Assembly: GCA_003158415.1 (NCBI GenBank)
Contig: PMJA01000129.1
Span: 1 to 6,145 of the forward strand
DNA from: Methylobacter sp.
Lineage (GTDB): Bacteria; Pseudomonadota; Gammaproteobacteria; Methylococcales; Methylomonadaceae
Reading direction: 5' to 3'
Length of the DNA: 6,145 nt
A model generated the notes under the pieces. That model did not search any database. It saw only the letters and a program-made list of their open reading frames with translations, and was not told where the DNA came from. A program made the translations under genes and the position numbers. Position 1 is the stretch's first letter; every line of letters begins with the position of its first letter. Shown here piece by piece: positions 56 to 6,088 of this stretch.

Positions 56-796
56 ATGATTATTAAAGCCGGACGTTACTCCATAAAATTTGAAAAAGGC
101 CCTACAGTGGCCTATTTATGCCTATTGCCGCTGTTGCTTGCGCTGGGAATCTGGCAGTTGGGACGTTCGGATGAAAAAAGGCACTTTCTTCAACAACAAG
201 AACAAGGCGCCGCCTCTGCTGAAATCATACAACTATCTGCCGACACTGAAAATGATGTGGAAAGACTCCGGTATAAAAAAGCCATCGCAACGGGTCATTA
301 TGATCAGGCGCATCAATTCCTGATAGATAATCAAATCAGCGCAGGGAAAGTGGGTTATTTGGTATTAACCCCGTTTGTTCTGCAAGGGGAAGCCAAGGCG
401 ATTTTGGTAAATAGGGGCTGGGTACCGTTAAATCGGGATAGATCGGTTTTACCCGACGTATCGATCACGAATGAACAAACCGTTATCACCGGCCGGATAA
501 ACCGTTTTCCCAGTGTCGGTATAAAATTAGCCGGGGCGGAAATACCGACCGATAGCTGGCCGTCTGTCACGCAGGTGGTTGACACCGCCGTTTTAGCAAA
601 AAAACTGGCTTATCCCTTATTCCCATTTCAGCTGGAACTGGATAAAGACCAGCAGGCAGGCTTTAGACGGGAATGGCAAACAACCGCCGTCATGTTGCCT
701 GAACAACATACGGCCTACGCGATTCAGTGGTTTGCACTGGCAATAACACTCACAATCCTATTTATTGGGTACAGTTGTAAAAGAAATGATAACTAA
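56..796 (+). CDS. surf1: SURF1-family cytochrome c oxidase assembly protein
   Basis: This 246-residue protein of the SURF1/Shy1 family is predicted to help assemble aa3-type cytochrome c oxidase in the inner membrane, where the family is linked to heme a insertion into subunit I. It has the family plan of two membrane helices, at about residues 16-34 and 220-239, flanking a large periplasmic domain. Family marks are G-x-W-Q-L-x-R at 31-37 at the end of helix 1, VNRGWVP at 118-124 in the middle domain, and HTAYAIQWFALA at 218-229 leading into helix 2. The length is normal for bacterial members. The ATG at 56 leaves a short cytoplasmic N-terminus, and the upstream Shine-Dalgarno is weak. The 3' end overlaps the next gene by 11 nt, which suggests translational coupling in a cox assembly operon. 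The family call is secure; the exact molecular role is taken from the family. Confidence 0.93.
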   Translation: MIIKAGRYSIKFEKGPTVAYLCLLPLLLALGIWQLGRSDEKRHFLQQQEQGAASAEIIQLSADTENDVERLRYKKAIATGHYDQAHQFLIDNQISAGKVGYLVLTPFVLQGEAKAILVNRGWVPLNRDRSVLPDVSITNEQTVITGRINRFPSVGIKLAGAEIPTDSWPSVTQVVDTAVLAKKLAYPLFPFQLELDKDQQAGFRREWQTTAVMLPEQHTAYAIQWFALAITLTILFIGYSCKRNDN

Positions 797-1529
797 ACAA
801 CAGAAGAAAAACCGGCTATTAATTCTGGCTATTTTCGGACTGACCATTATTCCTTTTTTAATCGCCTGGGGATTAAAAGAAAACCCCGGATTAGTAAAAG
901 GCACGACCAACAGCGGGCAACTGATCACTCCCCCGGTCACTACCGAGCGCACTGACTTTACCGGTTTTGACCCGTTTTCAGCTGAAAACTTAGCGGAGCT
1001 TTCCGGGCACTGGTTGATCGTCAATGTGATTCCAGACACCGGCTGCAATGAAGTTTGTCTGGATGCGCTGCTTAAAACCCGGCAATTACGGCTCATGTTA
1101 AATAAGGAGTTGTCGCGCACGCGCCGTATTGTTATTGTTTTTAAAGAACAGGCCACAGACGCCGCCAATCAATGGTGGTTAAAAGATACGCTGTTGTCGA
1201 GGCTACGCGGCACCAAAAACCCGGCAGACGACGCTCTTTTTTTGAGCCTGCTGCGTGAAGAAAACAAATTGGATGATGCGCTGATAGAGAAACTAATCGG
1301 CGCCGACGACAGGGAGTTCGCACTCAACTCTGATCTAATCCGGGTTAAACCCAGCGCTGAACTGGTTAAAAAAATTACAGGCATCCGGCAAAATAATAAT
1401 ATACCTGAGGGTATGTTGTTTTTAATGGATCCTCTGGGTAATTTAATGATGCAATATGAACCCGGTTTTAATACTTACAAAATAAAAGATGATCTCATGC
1501 ACCTACTCAAAATTTCACAAATCGGTTAG
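786..1529 (+). CDS. Membrane-anchored SCO/thioredoxin-like cytochrome oxidase assembly protein
   Basis: This 247-residue protein has one N-terminal membrane helix (about residues 11-29) after a basic start, so the rest should face the periplasm. The segment around 75-100 reads as a thioredoxin-like beta strand followed by C87-x3-C91, the spacing of the copper-binding or redox cysteines in SCO proteins. Near the C-terminus DPLGNLMMQYEPG resembles the end of the thioredoxin fold in small 'SCO-like' proteins often found between surf1 and ctaA. The usual SCO proline after the second cysteine is absent (C-L-D), and I see no clear equivalent of the SCO copper-ligand histidine. A redox or chaperone role in CuA or oxidase assembly is therefore inferred mainly from context. 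I chose the ATG at 786, inside the end of surf1 (11-nt overlap), over an in-frame TTG at 765, because it follows a purine-rich AAAAGAA stretch and gives a typical short basic N-terminus. Confidence 0.75.
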   Translation: MITKQQKKNRLLILAIFGLTIIPFLIAWGLKENPGLVKGTTNSGQLITPPVTTERTDFTGFDPFSAENLAELSGHWLIVNVIPDTGCNEVCLDALLKTRQLRLMLNKELSRTRRIVIVFKEQATDAANQWWLKDTLLSRLRGTKNPADDALFLSLLREENKLDDALIEKLIGADDREFALNSDLIRVKPSAELVKKITGIRQNNNIPEGMLFLMDPLGNLMMQYEPGFNTYKIKDDLMHLLKISQIG

Positions 1530-1540
1530 TAGAAAATAAA

Positions 1541-3466
1541 ATGTTCAGAAAATTAACTCTATTTGGCGTTGTTTTAACGTTAATAATTATTCTCTTAGGT
1601 TCATACACGCGGTTATCGGACGCTGATCCGGCGCTATCTTCGACTGGCCTTATGGCTTTATTAAAAGGCGGCGCTCATGTGTATCTGGCGGCGGCATCGG
1701 GTCTGTTGGTTGTGTTGCTGTGCTTGCTTGCATGGCGTCAACAACCGCGCAACACGGCCGTCATAACGACATCACTCACTTTAACGGTTCTTGTCGGTTT
1801 ACAAGCGGCTTTAGGCGTTTGGGCAAAAGCCATACACATCATGCCTGTCGTGATCACCGCGCAGGTAGTGCTGGGCATGCTGACCTTCGGATTAATGTTC
1901 GGACTGTATTTGCGTGTTAATCCGGCCATTACCGGCAGGCTCAGCAAGCAGCGCCCCGGTCTTGGTTTGTTTGCCCAACTATCCCTGCTGGTTTTATTGC
2001 TACAGATTATTCTGGGCGTCTGGGTCAGCGCCAATCATGCGGCGTTAGCTTGCAGCACTTTTCCGCAATGCAACGGATCGTGGTGGCCTAAAGCGGATTA
2101 TCAAAACGCGTTAAATTTACTGAACGGCTTAGTGACCGGCTATACCGGTGTTATCTCATTCGACGCCCAGCTGGCGGCCAACTGGCTGCACAGAGTCGGC
2201 GCCTTGGTCTGCTTTGTATGGCTAAGTTTGCTGATGTTCCAGGCAACAGCAACAAATTCGGCAAAACCGCTCAAAACCGCAGGTTTATGGCTAAGCGCGT
2301 TGATGTTTGCACAAATAGGGCTGGGCATTCTCGGCGTTAAGCTGGCTATGCCGCTATGGGCGGCAGTAACTCATCATGCCGTGTCAGCGTTATTAATGTT
2401 GCCGTTGATTGCGATCAGCTTTTATAGCCGATACGGCACGGAGACTTTACAGCCGCCTGCGCAGAATCGGAAACCTAAACTAACAGTCGTCAAAACAGAT
2501 GTAGCGGCAACGCCTGTTGAAGCAATCTATGTAGAACCTGCGCCTGAGTCGATCTACCTCCGTCTTAAGTCACAGTTAAAACGCACCCGCTCCGGGCTTA
2601 ACGGCCTACTGGCCAACCTGCCCATAGGCCAACAAACTGTTAACGATGATTTACTTGAAGAAATTGAAGCCGGTTTAATCATGGCTGATGTAGGCGTCGA
2701 TGCGACCACGGAAATAATCCGGCATTTGACGCAACGTGTTGAGCGGCATCAGTTGAATGATGGCTTGGCGCTATCGGTCGCCTTAAAGCAAGAACTACTG
2801 AGCATACTCCAGCCCTGCTGCATACCGTTGCAGATACCGAAACAGGATACACCGTTTGTTATACTGGTGGTCGGCGTTAATGGGGCGGGCAAAACGACAA
2901 CCATCGGCAAACTGGCCAAACGCCTGCAAGCGCAAGGCCATAGTGTCATGCTGGCCGCAGGGGATACCTTTAGAGCGGCCGCTGTCGAACAATTGCAGGT
3001 TTGGGGTGAGCGTAATAATATTCCTGTGGTGGCTCAGCATACCGGCGCGGATTCGGCATCGGTCATTTATGACGGACTGCAATCTGCACAGGCCAAGGGT
3101 ATCGATGTTTTGATTGCCGATACCGCCGGCCGCTTGCATACAAAATCCAATTTAATGGATGAATTGAAAAAAGTAAAACGGATTATGGGTAAACTGGACG
3201 CCGAAGCCCCCCATGAAGTGCTGCTGGTTTTGGATGCAGGTACCGGACAAAACGCCCTGTCCCAGGCAAAATTGTTTAATGAAACCGTCGCCTTAACGGG
3301 GTTGGTGTTGACCAAACTGGATGGCACGGCAAAAGGCGGTGTTATTTTCGCCTTGGCCAAACATGTCGGCATTCCCATTCGTTATATAGGCATAGGCGAA
3401 GGCATTGATGATTTACAGGATTTCGATGCCGAACTGTTTATCGACGCCTTGTTCGTCAAAGATTAA
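1541..3466 (+). CDS. ctaA-ftsY: Fusion: degenerate CtaA/COX15 heme A synthase-like domain + FtsY SRP receptor GTPase
   Basis: One open frame of 641 residues joins two proteins. Residues 1-298 are CtaA/COX15-like, with eight membrane helices (roughly 4-21, 45-65, 74-94, 101-124, 141-162, 215-234, 246-267, 272-294). The C-terminal half keeps WVSANHAALAC, a second cysteine (C171, C177), H217-R218 and H278, which are expected heme b ligands. The N-terminal half is eroded (see findings). Both CtaA ends are cytoplasmic, so the fused domain lies where FtsY works. Residues 299-337 form a Pro/Ala/Glu-containing linker. Residues 338-363 look like the FtsY amphipathic membrane-targeting helix (RLKSQLKRTR). 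The N domain follows, then the G domain: GVNGAGKT 445-452, DTFRAAA 475-481, DTAGR 527-531, DAGTGQ 565-570, TKLD 591-594, and a C-terminal GIGEGIDDLQDF segment. The GTPase looks intact and should receive SRP-ribosome complexes at the membrane. ftsE starts 5 nt downstream. Each half is secure; whether the cell makes a single 641-residue protein is not shown. Confidence 0.9.
   Translation: MFRKLTLFGVVLTLIIILLGSYTRLSDADPALSSTGLMALLKGGAHVYLAAASGLLVVLLCLLAWRQQPRNTAVITTSLTLTVLVGLQAALGVWAKAIHIMPVVITAQVVLGMLTFGLMFGLYLRVNPAITGRLSKQRPGLGLFAQLSLLVLLLQIILGVWVSANHAALACSTFPQCNGSWWPKADYQNALNLLNGLVTGYTGVISFDAQLAANWLHRVGALVCFVWLSLLMFQATATNSAKPLKTAGLWLSALMFAQIGLGILGVKLAMPLWAAVTHHAVSALLMLPLIAISFYSRYGTETLQPPAQNRKPKLTVVKTDVAATPVEAIYVEPAPESIYLRLKSQLKRTRSGLNGLLANLPIGQQTVNDDLLEEIEAGLIMADVGVDATTEIIRHLTQRVERHQLNDGLALSVALKQELLSILQPCCIPLQIPKQDTPFVILVVGVNGAGKTTTIGKLAKRLQAQGHSVMLAAGDTFRAAAVEQLQVWGERNNIPVVAQHTGADSASVIYDGLQSAQAKGIDVLIADTAGRLHTKSNLMDELKKVKRIMGKLDAEAPHEVLLVLDAGTGQNALSQAKLFNETVALTGLVLTKLDGTAKGGVIFALAKHVGIPIRYIGIGEGIDDLQDFDAELFIDALFVKD
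2408..2680 (+). other. CtaA-FtsY junction with no in-frame start codon
   Basis: This is the stretch from the end of the last CtaA helix (codon 290) to the codon before Met381 in the FtsY N domain. It contains no in-frame ATG, GTG or TTG. The nearest upstream candidates, GTG 2381, ATG 2396, TTG 2399 and TTG 2405, all lie inside membrane helix 8 and have no recognisable Shine-Dalgarno. The next ATG (2681) would remove the membrane-targeting helix and the first part of the N domain. In other frames the ATGs at 2499 and 2529 are each followed at once by TAG, and a TTG at 2517 reaches a stop after five codons. FtsY therefore seems to have no start of its own here. Confidence 0.85.
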
Positions 3467-3471
3467 AGATC

Positions 3472-4128
3472 ATGATTAAGTTCGTCACGGTAACCAAGCG
3501 CTATCCTGAGACTGGCGATGCCTTGCGTAATGTCAGCTTTCATTTGCAGCGCGGAGAAATCGCCTTTCTTACCGGCCACTCCGGCGCAGGAAAAAGCACC
3601 TTATTAAGATTGATTACAGCAATGGAGCGCTGCAGCCGGGGGCAGGTTTTATTAGATGGGCAAGATCTTGGGTCTGTAAAAGAACATCAACTGCCGTTTA
3701 TACGAAGAAAAATGGGCGTTATCTATCAGGATTACAAACTGCTGCAAGATAGGACTGTTTTTGACAATGTAGCCCTGCCCTTAGTGATAGCCGGTTTCGG
3801 ACATCATGAGGTTACCCGCAGGGTTCGGGCGGCATTGTATAAAGTCAACCTGTCCGGCAAGGAAAAAAAATACCCTCTGGCCTTGTCCGGCGGCGAACAG
3901 CAACGCGTCGGCATTGCCAGGGCGGTCGTTAATAAGCCGCCCATCATTATAGCGGACGAACCGACCGGAAACCTGGATCCGGATTTATCGGCTGAAATCA
4001 TGTTTCTGTTCGGCCAGTTTCAACAGGTCGGCGTTACGGTGCTTATCGCCTCACATGACATTTCTTTGATTGCACAACTGAACCACCGCGTCTTAAAGCT
4101 GGATCATGGCCAATTGGTTTCGAGTTAA
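3472..4128 (+). CDS. ftsE: Cell division ATP-binding protein FtsE
   Basis: This 218-residue ABC-type ATPase is the cytoplasmic half of the FtsEX complex, which acts at the division septum and drives periplasmic cell-wall hydrolase activation through FtsX. All nucleotide-binding motifs are present: Walker A GHSGAGKST at 35-43, the Q-loop at Q86 (IYQDYKLL), signature LSGGEQQR at 138-145, Walker B IIIADEPTGNLD ending about 169 with catalytic E163, and switch histidine H195 (ASHD). The length is normal for FtsE. IYQDYKLL and VFDNVALPL are typical of FtsE as opposed to LolD or MacB ATPases. It starts 5 nt after the stop of the upstream fusion gene and ends 3 nt before ftsX, so the three are almost certainly one transcription unit with coupled translation. 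The ATPase appears fully functional. Confidence 0.97.
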   Translation: MIKFVTVTKRYPETGDALRNVSFHLQRGEIAFLTGHSGAGKSTLLRLITAMERCSRGQVLLDGQDLGSVKEHQLPFIRRKMGVIYQDYKLLQDRTVFDNVALPLVIAGFGHHEVTRRVRAALYKVNLSGKEKKYPLALSGGEQQRVGIARAVVNKPPIIIADEPTGNLDPDLSAEIMFLFGQFQQVGVTVLIASHDISLIAQLNHRVLKLDHGQLVSS

Positions 4129-4131
4129 ACG

Positions 4132-5151
4132 ATGAATCGTAACAACAAAAATCATATCCGAAAAGATCCGCCGGCACGCCCAGTCAGGCAGGAAACCCGG
4201 CAAACCAGAACGGCCGGAGGTAATTTTGTCGATAAATTACACGCTTACCGGGATCTGCATGCGCACGCCCTGTTTTCCAGCCTGGGCCGCCTGGTCGGCT
4301 CGCCGTTTACCTCAATCATGACCATAGCGGTCTTGTCCATTGCTATTTCACTGGCCGGCGGTTTTTATATTTTGGTGGAAAATCTTCAGCAATTAACGGG
4401 CAATCTGGAAACCAGCAATCAAATATCCCTGTTTCTCAGGGATGATGTTTCCGATGCTCACGCCGATAAATTAGCCGACAGCATAAGACAGAATCCCAGC
4501 GTACAGGACGTTAAGTTAATTACCCGAAAACAGGCATTAGCTGAATTCCAAACCTACAGCGGCTTCGGCTCAGCGATTAATGCACTGGAAAAAAACCCGC
4601 TGCCTATCGTCTTACAGGTGCTGCCAAAAAACAGCCTGGAAGATAAACAAGGACTGGAGCTATTGCAACTTAGCTTTCAACAGTCTCCCGAAGTCGATTT
4701 TGCTCAAATGGATTTGCAATGGGTTCAGCGCCTGCAATCTATTATGGATGTGGCGCGGCTTTTTGCCACCCTTTTAAACCTGATGCTGGGGGCGGCTGTT
4801 GTGTTTATTATCGGCAACACGATACGCCTGGAACTGCATAACCGCCATGATGAAGTGGTGATCGAAAAACTGGTAGGCGCCACCAATTCGTTCATACAGC
4901 GACCTTTTTTGTACACAGGTTTTTGGATCGGCTTTCTCTCAGGCGTATCGGCATGGTTTATTGTCACCCTATTGATGTTGATATTAAGACACTCAATCGA
5001 AAAACTTTCAGAGCTTTATGGAGGCGGCTTTCATTTGTTATTTTTAAGTTTTACCCAGACCCTGGCGTTAATAGTTATTTCATCGGTACTGGGCGTGTTA
5101 GGTTCGTGGGCTGTACTCATCTATCAGTTACAGCACACGAAACCTGAATAA
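4132..5151 (+). CDS. ftsX: Cell division permease-like protein FtsX
   Basis: This 339-residue integral membrane partner of FtsE has the four-helix FtsX plan. A basic cytoplasmic N-terminal tail (about 1-55) is followed by TM1 at about 61-83, a periplasmic domain at about 84-205, TM2 at about 209-231, a cytoplasmic loop with LHNRHDEVVIEKLVGATNSF, TM3 at about 261-286, and TM4 at about 306-331. The EIVVEKLVGA-like loop, here EVVIEKLVGAT, is a strong FtsX mark; it lies after TM2 and is thought to contact the ATPase. The periplasmic domain includes SNQISLFLRDDVSD and a later AQMDLQWVQRL segment, as in FtsX proteins that engage hydrolase activators. The long N-terminal tail rich in Arg, Lys, Asn and Pro is typical of gammaproteobacterial FtsX. 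The gene begins 3 nt after the ftsE stop, so translation is probably coupled. No defect is visible. Confidence 0.96.
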   Translation: MNRNNKNHIRKDPPARPVRQETRQTRTAGGNFVDKLHAYRDLHAHALFSSLGRLVGSPFTSIMTIAVLSIAISLAGGFYILVENLQQLTGNLETSNQISLFLRDDVSDAHADKLADSIRQNPSVQDVKLITRKQALAEFQTYSGFGSAINALEKNPLPIVLQVLPKNSLEDKQGLELLQLSFQQSPEVDFAQMDLQWVQRLQSIMDVARLFATLLNLMLGAAVVFIIGNTIRLELHNRHDEVVIEKLVGATNSFIQRPFLYTGFWIGFLSGVSAWFIVTLLMLILRHSIEKLSELYGGGFHLLFLSFTQTLALIVISSVLGVLGSWAVLIYQLQHTKPE

Positions 5152-5171: not shown

Positions 5172-5198
5172 TTAGCACTCTTTGACGCAGAGTGCTAA
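5172..5198 (+). promoter_or_regulatory. CIRCE operator (HrcA-binding site)
   Basis: The sequence is an exact match to the CIRCE consensus, TTAGCACTC at 5172-5180, a 9-nt spacer, and GAGTGCTAA at 5190-5198. Both arms are perfect 9-nt inverted repeats. CIRCE is the operator of the heat-shock repressor HrcA, whose activity depends on GroEL. Here it lies 32 nt upstream of the rpoH start and its spacer contains the -35 hexamer of the predicted rpoH promoter. Bound HrcA should therefore block RNA polymerase directly. No hrcA gene is in the window. Confidence 0.95.
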
Positions 5199-5230: not shown

Positions 5231-6088
5231 ATGAGTAACTCATTAGCTTTACCCGTTAATTTATCGGTTGGCACATTTGACGCCTATTTAAATCTGGTTC
5301 GGCAAATGCCCCGGCTGACATCCGACCGGGAGCGCGAATTAACGTTAAAATTTAGAGATGACGGTGACTTGGAAGCCGCCCGGGAATTGGTAATGAGCAA
5401 TTTACGGTTTGTCGTTCATGTCGCCAGAGGCTACAGCGGCTATGGTTTGTCGATGCCTGATATTATCCAGGAAGGCAATATCGGCTTGATGAAAGCGGTT
5501 AAACGTTTTGATCCTGACATCGGCGTGCGCTTGGTCTCTTTTGCCGTGCATTGGATCAAAGCGGAAATTCACGAATATGTGATTAAAAACTGGGGTATCG
5601 TAAAAGTTGCAACCACCAAAGCCCAACGCAAACTGTTTTTTAATTTGCGTAAATCCAAACAGGATATAGGCTGGTTATCGAATGACGAAGCCAAGGCAAT
5701 TGCTGAAAATCTGAATGTTGAACTGAGCGACGTTTACGAAATGGAAAAACGCTTGGGCAGCCCAGATATGTCATTCGATATGCCCGTGGATGAGGCCGCC
5801 GAGGAAAGTTATACAGCGCCTGCCAACTACCTCCAACAGCACGCAGCCGATCCTTCCGTGTTACTTGAAAATGCTGATTGGGAAGGGCACGGACAGGATT
5901 TATTAGCCGTAGCGATGGCAAAATTAGATAAACGCAGCTTGGACATTCTTTCAAGCCGCTGGTTGGCGGACAAAAAAGCCACCTTACATGAACTAGCCGA
6001 GCGCTACAACGTGTCTGCGGAAAGAATCAGGCAATTGGAACAAAATGCCTTGAAAAAACTCAAGGCAACCGTCGTACTGGATGCCTGA
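5231..6088 (+). CDS. rpoH: Heat-shock sigma factor sigma-32 (RpoH)
   Basis: This 285-residue alternative sigma factor directs RNA polymerase to heat-shock promoters. Region 2 spans about 50-122, with LRFVVHVARGYSGYGL and DIIQEGNIGLMKAVKRFDP for core binding and -10 melting, and LVSFAVHWIKAEIHEYVIKNW for -10 recognition. The RpoH box QRKLFFNLR lies at 132-140 and separates RpoH from RpoD and RpoS. Region 4.2 at about 250-278 carries the helix-turn-helix LHELAERYNVSAERIRQLE for -35 recognition. Length is normal for RpoH. It follows ftsX, as in many gammaproteobacteria, but has its own promoter and a CIRCE operator, so it is probably controlled separately from ftsEX by HrcA, in addition to any read-through. 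In the family, protein stability is controlled by DnaK and FtsH; the sequence does not show this directly. Confidence 0.97.
   Translation: MSNSLALPVNLSVGTFDAYLNLVRQMPRLTSDRERELTLKFRDDGDLEAARELVMSNLRFVVHVARGYSGYGLSMPDIIQEGNIGLMKAVKRFDPDIGVRLVSFAVHWIKAEIHEYVIKNWGIVKVATTKAQRKLFFNLRKSKQDIGWLSNDEAKAIAENLNVELSDVYEMEKRLGSPDMSFDMPVDEAAEESYTAPANYLQQHAADPSVLLENADWEGHGQDLLAVAMAKLDKRSLDILSSRWLADKKATLHELAERYNVSAERIRQLEQNALKKLKATVVLDA

What the first reader, a model, noticed from the sequence alone, without database searches (positions are those of the whole stretch)
1541..3466. In-frame fusion of a heme A synthase-like membrane protein to the SRP receptor FtsY
Seen: one 641-codon frame encodes eight CtaA/COX15-like helices followed by a complete FtsY N and G domain with all GTPase motifs. 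Known: FtsY is normally a separate protein with a variable acidic A domain and binds membranes through a short amphipathic helix; CtaA is normally a separate enzyme whose two ends face the cytoplasm. Inference: the fusion would make FtsY a permanent integral membrane protein, with CtaA replacing the A domain. It could also bring SRP-dependent insertion of polytopic oxidase subunits close to heme and oxidase assembly. I do not know of a described CtaA-FtsY fusion, but I could not search for one.
Basis: partly seen in the sequence, partly recalled or inferred. Interest (0 to 1): 0.93.

Follow-up and report, generated by a model that had tools for sequence, protein, structure and literature searches.

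The report
SRP receptor built on heme-enzyme anchor
In methane-oxidising bacteria and their relatives the protein-targeting receptor FtsY is fused in one gene to the membrane domain of heme A synthase; in this genome the enzyme's catalytic glutamate is gone while its heme-b ligands remain, so the domain is predicted to serve as a permanent, likely heme-carrying membrane anchor for FtsY.

Summary
The fusion is real. Bases 1541-3466 are one 641-codon frame: a CtaA/COX15 membrane domain (aa 1-297), a linker, and a complete FtsY NG domain. It is no assembly accident: of 131 genomes from six families of the order (Methylococcales by named relatives), 128 have an FtsY over the curated cut-off, one each, and in 124 of these it is fused. 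Two other families keep ctaA and ftsY separate, neighbouring and convergent, with the ftsY surroundings seen in other gammaproteobacteria; one inversion would join them. I saw no fusion among 119 other phylum genomes or, in a cut hit list, 366 other class genomes.

Of 106 fused proteins 24 keep the glutamate, but 104 keep both heme-b histidines. 120 of 131 genomes have a further CtaA match; the 21 second copies I read are separate and have the glutamate. Three near-complete genomes without one keep every tested catalytic residue in the fused copy. So the domain is most likely now FtsY's membrane anchor, still binding heme b. Anchoring, heme binding and lost activity are predictions. My open-access searches found no description.

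The parts
56..796 (+). SURF1 (heme A / cytochrome oxidase assembly protein) gene
   Evidence: PF02104, 145.2 bits; upstream of the fusion in most fetched loci
786..1529 (+). ORF2 between SURF1 and ctaA; no Pfam match, weak C-terminal match to NF058629 (46.9 bits, cut-off 230, not met)
1541..3466 (+). ctaA::ftsY fusion gene, 641 codons plus stop
1541..1930 (+). aa 1-130: former catalytic (N-terminal) half of CtaA; no Glu, one Cys only, TM2 motif E..HR reads G..HV (His46), TM4 His reads Gln108
1931..2431 (+). aa 131-297: C-terminal, heme-b half of CtaA
2051..2053 (+). Cys171 codon (second Cys pair, with Cys177 at 2069-2071); each kept in 104 of 106 fused proteins
2189..2191 (+). His217 codon, equivalent of heme-b ligand H216 of B. 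subtilis CtaA
2372..2374 (+). His278 codon, equivalent of heme-b ligand H278 of B. subtilis CtaA
2432..2551 (+). aa 298-337: linker, low model confidence, weakly constrained (median dN/dS 0.76), no in-frame start codon
2552..3463 (+). aa 338-641: FtsY N-terminal helix and NG domain; GTPase domain aa 438-638
3472..4128 (+). ftsE
   Evidence: ABC_tran 126.8 bits and position between ftsY and ftsX
4132..5151 (+). ftsX
   Evidence: FtsX_ECD and FtsX permease matches
5231..6088 (+). rpoH-type sigma factor gene
   Evidence: Sigma70_r2 and r4; the name rpoH is from gene order and recall

Best explanation
One gene encodes the SRP receptor FtsY joined to the eight-helix membrane domain of a former heme A synthase (CtaA) that has lost its catalytic glutamate but kept both heme-b histidines, and this domain is predicted to hold FtsY permanently in the membrane, likely still with a heme b bound. 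Shown by sequence: the single frame, its conservation through six families, the absence of a second ftsY in relatives, the loss of catalytic residues, the retention of the heme-b ligands, and a separate CtaA with the catalytic Glu in the same genome. Inferred origin: in the ancestor, ftsY-ftsE-ftsX-rpoH and cox-SURF1-ORF2-ctaA-ctaB lay next to each other in convergent orientation (as in families f7 and f8); one inversion between the ctaA/ctaB and the peptidase-M16/ftsY boundaries placed ctaA head-to-tail in front of ftsY and they became one frame. Inferred mechanism: CtaA has both ends in the cytoplasm (recalled), so the NG domain would face the cytoplasm on a flexible tether, always at the membrane, and receive SRP-ribosome complexes without the usual membrane-binding step. 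At first the protein would have been bifunctional, as it may still be in lineages without a second CtaA. Once a second CtaA made heme A, the active site decayed many times independently, but the domain stayed because FtsY had likely come to depend on it. Why the heme-b site persists is not shown; a structural or a redox/heme-sensing role would fit.
For: Fusion and breadth: a match running across the junction in 123 of 131 f1-f6 genomes (one of them, G077, with an internal TGA; three, G027, G041 and G089, reach back only to query residues 214-224), plus G068; of the 7 others, G022, G038 and G065 have no FtsY over cut-off, G005, G023 and G073 are cut by contig ends, G147 is split. Single FtsY: 128 of 131 have exactly one over the TIGR00064 cut-off, none has two (recounted); the own-genome second match is an Ffh fragment. 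One origin: 106 fused FtsYs are one clade, SH-aLRT 96, 1 change (quick tree). Inversion: gene orders of L143-L146 against L152, and the f7/f8-like ftsY surroundings in 10 of 12 outgroup loci. Decay: E57 kept in 24, loop-1 Cys in 61 and 59, H123 in 69 of 106; H216 and H278 each in 104 of 106; E57 lost in 82, heme-b pair kept in 80 of those (a second alignment gave the same counts but for C42, 60; motif search 19 against 104). In the 82 decayed copies the four most conserved CtaA positions are H278, H217, C177, C171. Tree changes: E57 16, heme-b pair 2. Constraint: median dN/dS 0.30 N half, 0.165 C half, 0.76 linker, 0.05 NG. Second CtaA: 120 of 131 f1-f6 genomes have two or more PF02628 matches; 21 of 21 second copies read have the Glu. 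Of genomes at least 90% complete whose only CtaA match is the fused one, 3 of 3 (G054, G079, G094) keep all tested catalytic residues. Published: the equivalent Glu (yeast E166) is essential, E166A abolishes activity, N half is the likely substrate site and C half binds heme b (PMC13213658 passages; PMC8239418 section 9 part 1); loop-1 Cys important for activity (PMC8239418). FtsY tethered by a transmembrane domain works in vivo (PMC2780400 passages).
Against: No protein, heme or activity data exist here. Some CtaA types are classed as heme A synthases despite E57 substitutions (E57N, E57K+H123N; PMC8239418 table 1), so Glu loss alone does not prove inactivity. Two of 106 fused proteins (G058, G089) also lost the heme-b pair, and in g8 the CtaA half is nearly unrecognisable, so heme is not always needed. 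The other 14 of the 17 fused copies with a complete catalytic set come from genomes with two CtaA matches, so a second copy does not always lead to decay; and two incomplete genomes with only the fused match, G007 (65% complete) and G104 (85%), have lost the Glu (G011, 75%, was not read). On the CtaA tree the fused copy of G094 groups with the free f7/f8 CtaAs (99/94), so that tree alone does not show one fused clade, though the data do not reject it (AU p 0.234). G065, rated 100% complete, shows no FtsY over the cut-off. The window's genome is 80% complete, so a free ftsY there is excluded only through relatives. Cleavage in the linker could release FtsY.
Confidence: 0.8

Rival explanations
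1. Bifunctional enzyme: the fused protein is still a working heme A synthase in the window's lineage as well as the SRP receptor, coupling heme A supply to co-translational insertion of oxidase subunits.
For: SURF1 is upstream in most loci and coxA in 9 of 15 long ones; 17 of 106 fused proteins keep every tested catalytic residue, including the three from near-complete genomes with no other CtaA match; the fold matches 6a2j.
Against: The window copy has no Glu in its first 130 residues, no loop-1 Cys pair and Gln for H123; a separate CtaA with the Glu is present at G000:C200; the Glu is lost in 82 of 106.
Confidence: 0.1
2. Oxidase-assembly partner: the decayed CtaA half is kept as a heme-binding partner of SURF1/CtaB or of oxidase subunit I, and FtsY simply rides along.
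For: Heme-b ligands and second Cys pair are the best kept positions; SURF1-ORF2 stays upstream in most loci; yeast Cox15 associates with oxidase assembly intermediates (title in the reference list of PMC9145763).
Against: In g8 (G041, G089) the CtaA half has almost lost its identity yet SURF1, ORF2 and the fusion remain, so the membrane part persists without an intact heme half.
Confidence: 0.2
3. Post-translational separation: the linker is cut and FtsY works as a free peripheral protein; the fusion is only a shared frame.
For: The linker has low model confidence and is weakly constrained.
Against: Nothing points to a separate product: start codons with an SD-like 4-mer occur near the junction in 28 of 106 genes, at no shared place (at most 3 genes each), and in the window no start lies after aa 289 up to aa 370. 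I did not search for protease sites. Of 128 f1-f6 genomes with an FtsY only G147 shows separate frames, in a copy with an internal FtsY gap.
Confidence: 0.15
4. Assembly or annotation artefact joining two neighbouring genes.
For: The window is from a fragmented metagenome assembly of 425 contigs.
Against: The same junction is seen in 124 of 128 genomes, including a single-contig one, G019, and in the 120 listed database proteins.
Confidence: 0.01

Closest known systems
FtsY of E. coli and other proteobacteria (TIGR00064)
   Same: NG domain, over the family cut-off; followed by ftsE, ftsX, rpoH
   Different: There membrane binding is peripheral, through lipid-binding domains (PMC2780400 passages); here a polytopic domain replaces the A domain
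FtsY with a true transmembrane helix (PMC2780400 passage on Gram-positive bacteria and archaea) and engineered NG fusions to a membrane polypeptide (Zelazny 1997, seen only as a citation there)
   Same: FtsY tethered to the membrane by its own polypeptide
   Different: Natural, in six families, eight helices, derived from a heme enzyme with heme ligands kept
Heme A synthase CtaA/Cox15 type 1.1 (PMC8239418)
   Different: Catalytic Glu, first Cys pair and H123 lost in the window copy; C-terminal FtsY
CtaA-CtaB fusions (PMC8239418 table 1)
   Same: CtaA fused to another gene's product
   Different: Partner there is the heme O synthase of the same pathway; here an unrelated protein-targeting GTPase
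Eukaryotic SRP receptor alpha/beta
   Same: An integral membrane part tethers the SRP-binding GTPase permanently (PMC2780400 abstract)
   Different: SRbeta is a separate GTPase subunit; here one chain with an unrelated anchor

Membership tests
FtsY (SRP receptor) | Family profile over curated cut-off | tested here: met
   TIGR00064 364.8 bits, cut-off 260.7
FtsY (SRP receptor) | Complete N and G domains with the NG fold | tested here: met
FtsY (SRP receptor) | The genome's only FtsY | tested here: met
   No second match over cut-off in 131 f1-f6 genomes; the own genome is 80% complete, its other match is Ffh
FtsY (SRP receptor) | Binds SRP and supports membrane protein targeting | not testable with these tools
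   needs an experiment
Heme A synthase (CtaA/Cox15) | Family profile and eight-helix fold | tested here: met
Heme A synthase (CtaA/Cox15) | Catalytic glutamate (E57) in the N half | tested here: not met
   No Glu in aa 1-130; 24 of 106 fused proteins keep it
Heme A synthase (CtaA/Cox15) | Loop-1 Cys pair of type 1 enzymes | tested here: not met
   Absent in the window
Heme A synthase (CtaA/Cox15) | Both N-half histidines, H60 and H123 | tested here: not met
   His46 aligns with H60, but Gln replaces H123
Heme A synthase (CtaA/Cox15) | C-half heme-b ligands H216 and H278 | tested here: met
   His217 and His278; both kept in 104 of 106
[quoted passage not shown]
   needs an experiment

The most novel reading that the evidence does not exclude
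The SRP receptor of these methanotrophs is a b-type cytochrome: FtsY is hard-wired to a heme-b-carrying pseudo-heme-A-synthase, so heme or redox state in the membrane can gate membrane-protein targeting, above all of the terminal oxidase whose genes lie in the same run.
Probability: 0.3. Interest if true: 0.93.

Novelty: new variant of a known kind. Interest (0 to 1): 0.82.

Why it matters
In E. coli and other proteobacteria FtsY is recruited to the membrane as a peripheral protein (PMC2780400). Here an essential targeting factor has been tied, by what looks like one inversion, to an unrelated eight-helix heme enzyme, and in six families only one genome seen (G147, doubtful) has the two parts in separate frames. 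It gives a natural test of whether FtsY needs to cycle on and off the membrane, and of how a gene fusion becomes irreversible after one partner loses its original job. The kept heme-b ligands raise a direct question: why should an SRP receptor carry a heme? Where a source names these proteins it names only the SRP receptor, so the heme domain has been hidden in plain sight in an environmentally important group.

Tried and rejected
Looked for a free-standing ftsY or split gene in relatives: no genome of 131 has two FtsY matches over the cut-off; only G147 shows separate frames (359 and 251 aa, overlapping), and its FtsY frame also lacks an internal stretch, so I treat it as an assembly error or decay.

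Looked for the fusion elsewhere. Class search, 369 genomes: among the rows printed (the list is cut) only G000, G044 and G093, all of the fusion families, span both halves; a few others reach back into the end of the CtaA part (G249 from query residue 267, G390 from 277, G272 from 283) without covering it. Phylum search: 119 of 119 others start at query residue 301 or later. The genome-contig scan kept 80 loci of a capped list; those covering both halves are methanotroph records.

The fused CtaA half found nothing in PDB by sequence; the link to 6a2j came from the structure model. Foldseek's 50 printed rows are FtsY/SRP chains only. Internal translation start looked for and not supported. On the CtaA tree the fused copies did not form one side of a branch; an AU test did not reject one clade (p 0.234).

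Papers: ten searches in open-access PMC; no paper listed describes a CtaA/COX15-FtsY fusion by its title or the start of its abstract; the texts of PMC8239418 and PMC9145763 have no occurrence of FtsY. Subscription papers were not searched. PMC8239418: passages and section 9 part 1; PMC2780400: abstract and passages; PMC13213658 and PMC9145763: passages.

Naming: residue numbers E57, H60, H123 and H278 are as in PMC8239418 table 1; H216, R61, R217 and the Cys numbers are recalled, as is CtaA's topology, the name rsmD and the CIRCE consensus. Left out of the residue count: G004, G077 and G088 (no closed full-length frame in the loci at hand) and genomes not fetched, so 106 of 131. N-terminal extra residues of G100 and G135 were cut off before alignment. 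The dN/dS medians use only pairs with 0.1<dS<1.5 (144, 101, 195 and 61 of 435 pairs for N half, C half, linker, NG). The model's alignment used 24 of the 120 listed database proteins and 11 loci. The CtaA tree used 30 of 106 fused, 21 second and 7 free copies.

Full report

It is real and old. The 120 listed database proteins (the window's own first) have the same architecture. Among 151 genomes, 131 belong to six families (f1-f6) and 20 to two others (f7, f8). In f1-f6, 128 have exactly one FtsY over the curated cut-off, 3 (G022, G038, G065) have none, and none has two (recounted). In 124 of those 128 a match or frame runs across the junction (123, of which G077 has one internal TGA and G027, G041 and G089 reach back only to query residues 214-224; G068); three are cut at contig ends and G147 is split. 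No f7 or f8 genome shows the fusion; the four f7/f8 loci read have a free FtsY and a free CtaA. On a quick tree of NG domains the 106 fused sequences form one clade (SH-aLRT 96, one change of state; 106 fused, 4 free from f7/f8, 8 outgroup sequences). Elsewhere I saw no fusion: 119 of 119 other phylum genomes match from query residue 301 on, and of 369 class genomes only the three from the fusion families span both halves among the rows printed (list cut). Where a source gives a name it is FtsY or fused signal recognition particle receptor (to my recollection the latter is a general database name for FtsY), so the heme-enzyme half is invisible in annotation.

How it arose. In f7 and f8 the four loci read (L143-L146) have rsmD(-) M16(-) M16(-) ftsY(+) ftsE(+) ftsX(+) rpoH(+) [aspartyl protease(-) in three of four] ctaB(-) ctaA(-) ORF2(-) SURF1(-) coxC(-) ... 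(M16, ctaB and the protease identified by Pfam; the name rsmD is recalled). The M16-ftsY part of that order is also found in 10 of 12 outgroup gammaproteobacterial loci looked at, so it is likely ancestral. In the f6 locus L152 the order is cox genes, SURF1, ORF2, ctaA::ftsY, ftsE, ftsX, rpoH (all +), ctaB(-), M16(+), M16(+), rsmD(+). Inverting the stretch from ftsY to ctaB turns the first order into the second, apart from the protease gene and an extra frame between ftsX and rpoH in L152, and brings the end of ctaA against the start of ftsY. Of the 15 fused loci with long flanks only L152 still shows the ctaB-M16-rsmD side; in 9 of 15 the coxA gene lies upstream. The inversion is an inference from gene order.

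What happened to the enzyme. Heme A synthase has an N-terminal half with the likely heme O site, where a glutamate is essential, and a C-terminal half that binds heme b through two histidines (PMC8239418 section 9 part 1; PMC13213658 passages: yeast E166A abolishes activity). The loop-1 cysteine pair, not the loop-3 pair, is important for activity (PMC8239418). In the window the first 130 residues contain no glutamate and a single cysteine, the E..HR motif reads G..HV and H123 is Gln. Over 106 fused proteins: C35 61, C42 59, E57 24, H60 76, R61 48, H123 69, but C191 104, C197 104, H216 104, R217 101, H278 104 (a second alignment gave the same counts except C42 60). E57 is lost in 82, and 80 of these keep both heme-b histidines. 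By motif, 19 of 106 have E..[HN][RK] in the N half and 104 have two histidines at the right spacing in the C half, with the halves cut by the alignment. Within the 82 decayed copies the four most conserved positions of the membrane domain are H278, H217, C177 and C171. On the tree E57 needs 16 changes, the heme-b pair 2. Median dN/dS among 30 sequences of the window's genus and a neighbour genus is 0.30 for the N half, 0.165 for the C half, 0.76 for the linker and 0.05 for NG (pairs filtered by dS). So the membrane domain is still under purifying selection, more in the heme-b half than in the former catalytic half.

Who makes heme A. The window's genome has a coxA gene and a second, separate CtaA (G000:C200, 329 aa). 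In f1-f6, 120 of 131 genomes have two or more PF02628 matches, 10 have one, 1 none. The 21 second copies read form their own clade apart from fused plus f7/f8 CtaA (100/100), and all 21 have the Glu, Asn at H60, and both heme-b histidines, like the H60N type 1.3 of PMC8239418. Where the fused protein is the only CtaA match and the genome is at least 90% complete (G054, G079, G094), it keeps every tested catalytic residue; 3 of 3 against 17 of 106 overall, hypergeometric 0.0035, but two are of one genus, and G079 has no COX1 match. Against this, the less complete G007 and G104 also show only a fused match and have lost the Glu, and the other 14 complete fused copies coexist with a second CtaA match. 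At the other end, in g8 (G041, G089) the CtaA half is barely recognisable, yet a hydrophobic domain is still fused to FtsY, and the only PF02628 match of these genomes is a separate one.

Reading. The simplest account is: fusion by inversion, first bifunctional; a second CtaA freed the fused copy from catalysis; the enzyme site decayed repeatedly; the domain stayed because it had become FtsY's membrane anchor. Anchoring fits published work: FtsY needs membrane contact, and FtsY tethered by a transmembrane domain is functional in vivo (PMC2780400 abstract and passages; the underlying 1997 study seen only as a citation). What a plain anchor does not explain is why the heme-b ligands are the best kept part. 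Either the heme holds the fold together, or the domain keeps a heme or redox role; I favour that heme b is still bound, and leave its role open.

Against. No expression or biochemical data. Table 1 of PMC8239418 classes CtaA types with E57 substitutions among heme A synthases, so loss of activity is likely rather than proven. On the CtaA tree the fused copy of f5 (G094) groups with the free f7/f8 CtaAs (99/94), which would fit two fusions or a fusion undone in f7/f8; the constraint of one fused clade is not rejected (AU p 0.234), and the NG tree and the outgroup gene order favour a single fusion from a free state. Linker cleavage cannot be excluded; internal initiation is unlikely, since in the window no start codon lies in frame after aa 289 up to aa 370 and no shared SD-plus-start place exists over 106 genes. 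Two of 106 fused proteins lost the heme-b pair. G065, rated 100% complete, has no FtsY over the cut-off, which I cannot explain other than as an assembly gap.

Literature. Ten open-access full-text searches listed no paper that describes a CtaA/COX15-FtsY fusion by title or start of abstract; subscription papers are not covered.

Noticed in passing
window 5172-5198: A perfect CIRCE element (TTAGCACTC-N9-GAGTGCTAA, consensus recalled) lies 32 bases before the rpoH start, the only exact copy found in this 80% complete genome. Exact copies also occur in 15 of 241 fetched loci, mostly close to rpoH, suggesting HrcA control of the heat-shock sigma factor.
   Followed up: partly
G041 (L224) and G089 (L225): In genus g8 the CtaA half of the fusion has lost nearly all its family motifs and is shorter (306 aa in G041 and 253 aa in G089 before the FtsY part), yet a hydrophobic domain is still fused to FtsY.
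   Followed up: partly
G147 (L222:4297-6094): The only f1-f6 genome seen with CtaA and FtsY in two overlapping frames; its FtsY frame also lacks an internal stretch.
   Followed up: partly
L142:3286-4275 and L202-L221: The second, separate CtaA is of a different clade with Asn in place of H60; none of its neighbours in L142 or L203 looks like a cox gene (frames listed, not searched against Pfam).
   Followed up: partly
G433, G484, G415, G470, G237; G608, G530: Other proteobacterial FtsY frames of 615-1295 codons whose long N-terminal parts do not match the CtaA half; they may be long A domains, other fusions or open-frame read-up.
   Followed up: no
window 786-1529: ORF2 between SURF1 and ctaA has no Pfam match and only a weak match to a redox-active disulfide protein family, yet it stays between SURF1 and ctaA in most loci, including the f7 and f8 ones.
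   Followed up: no
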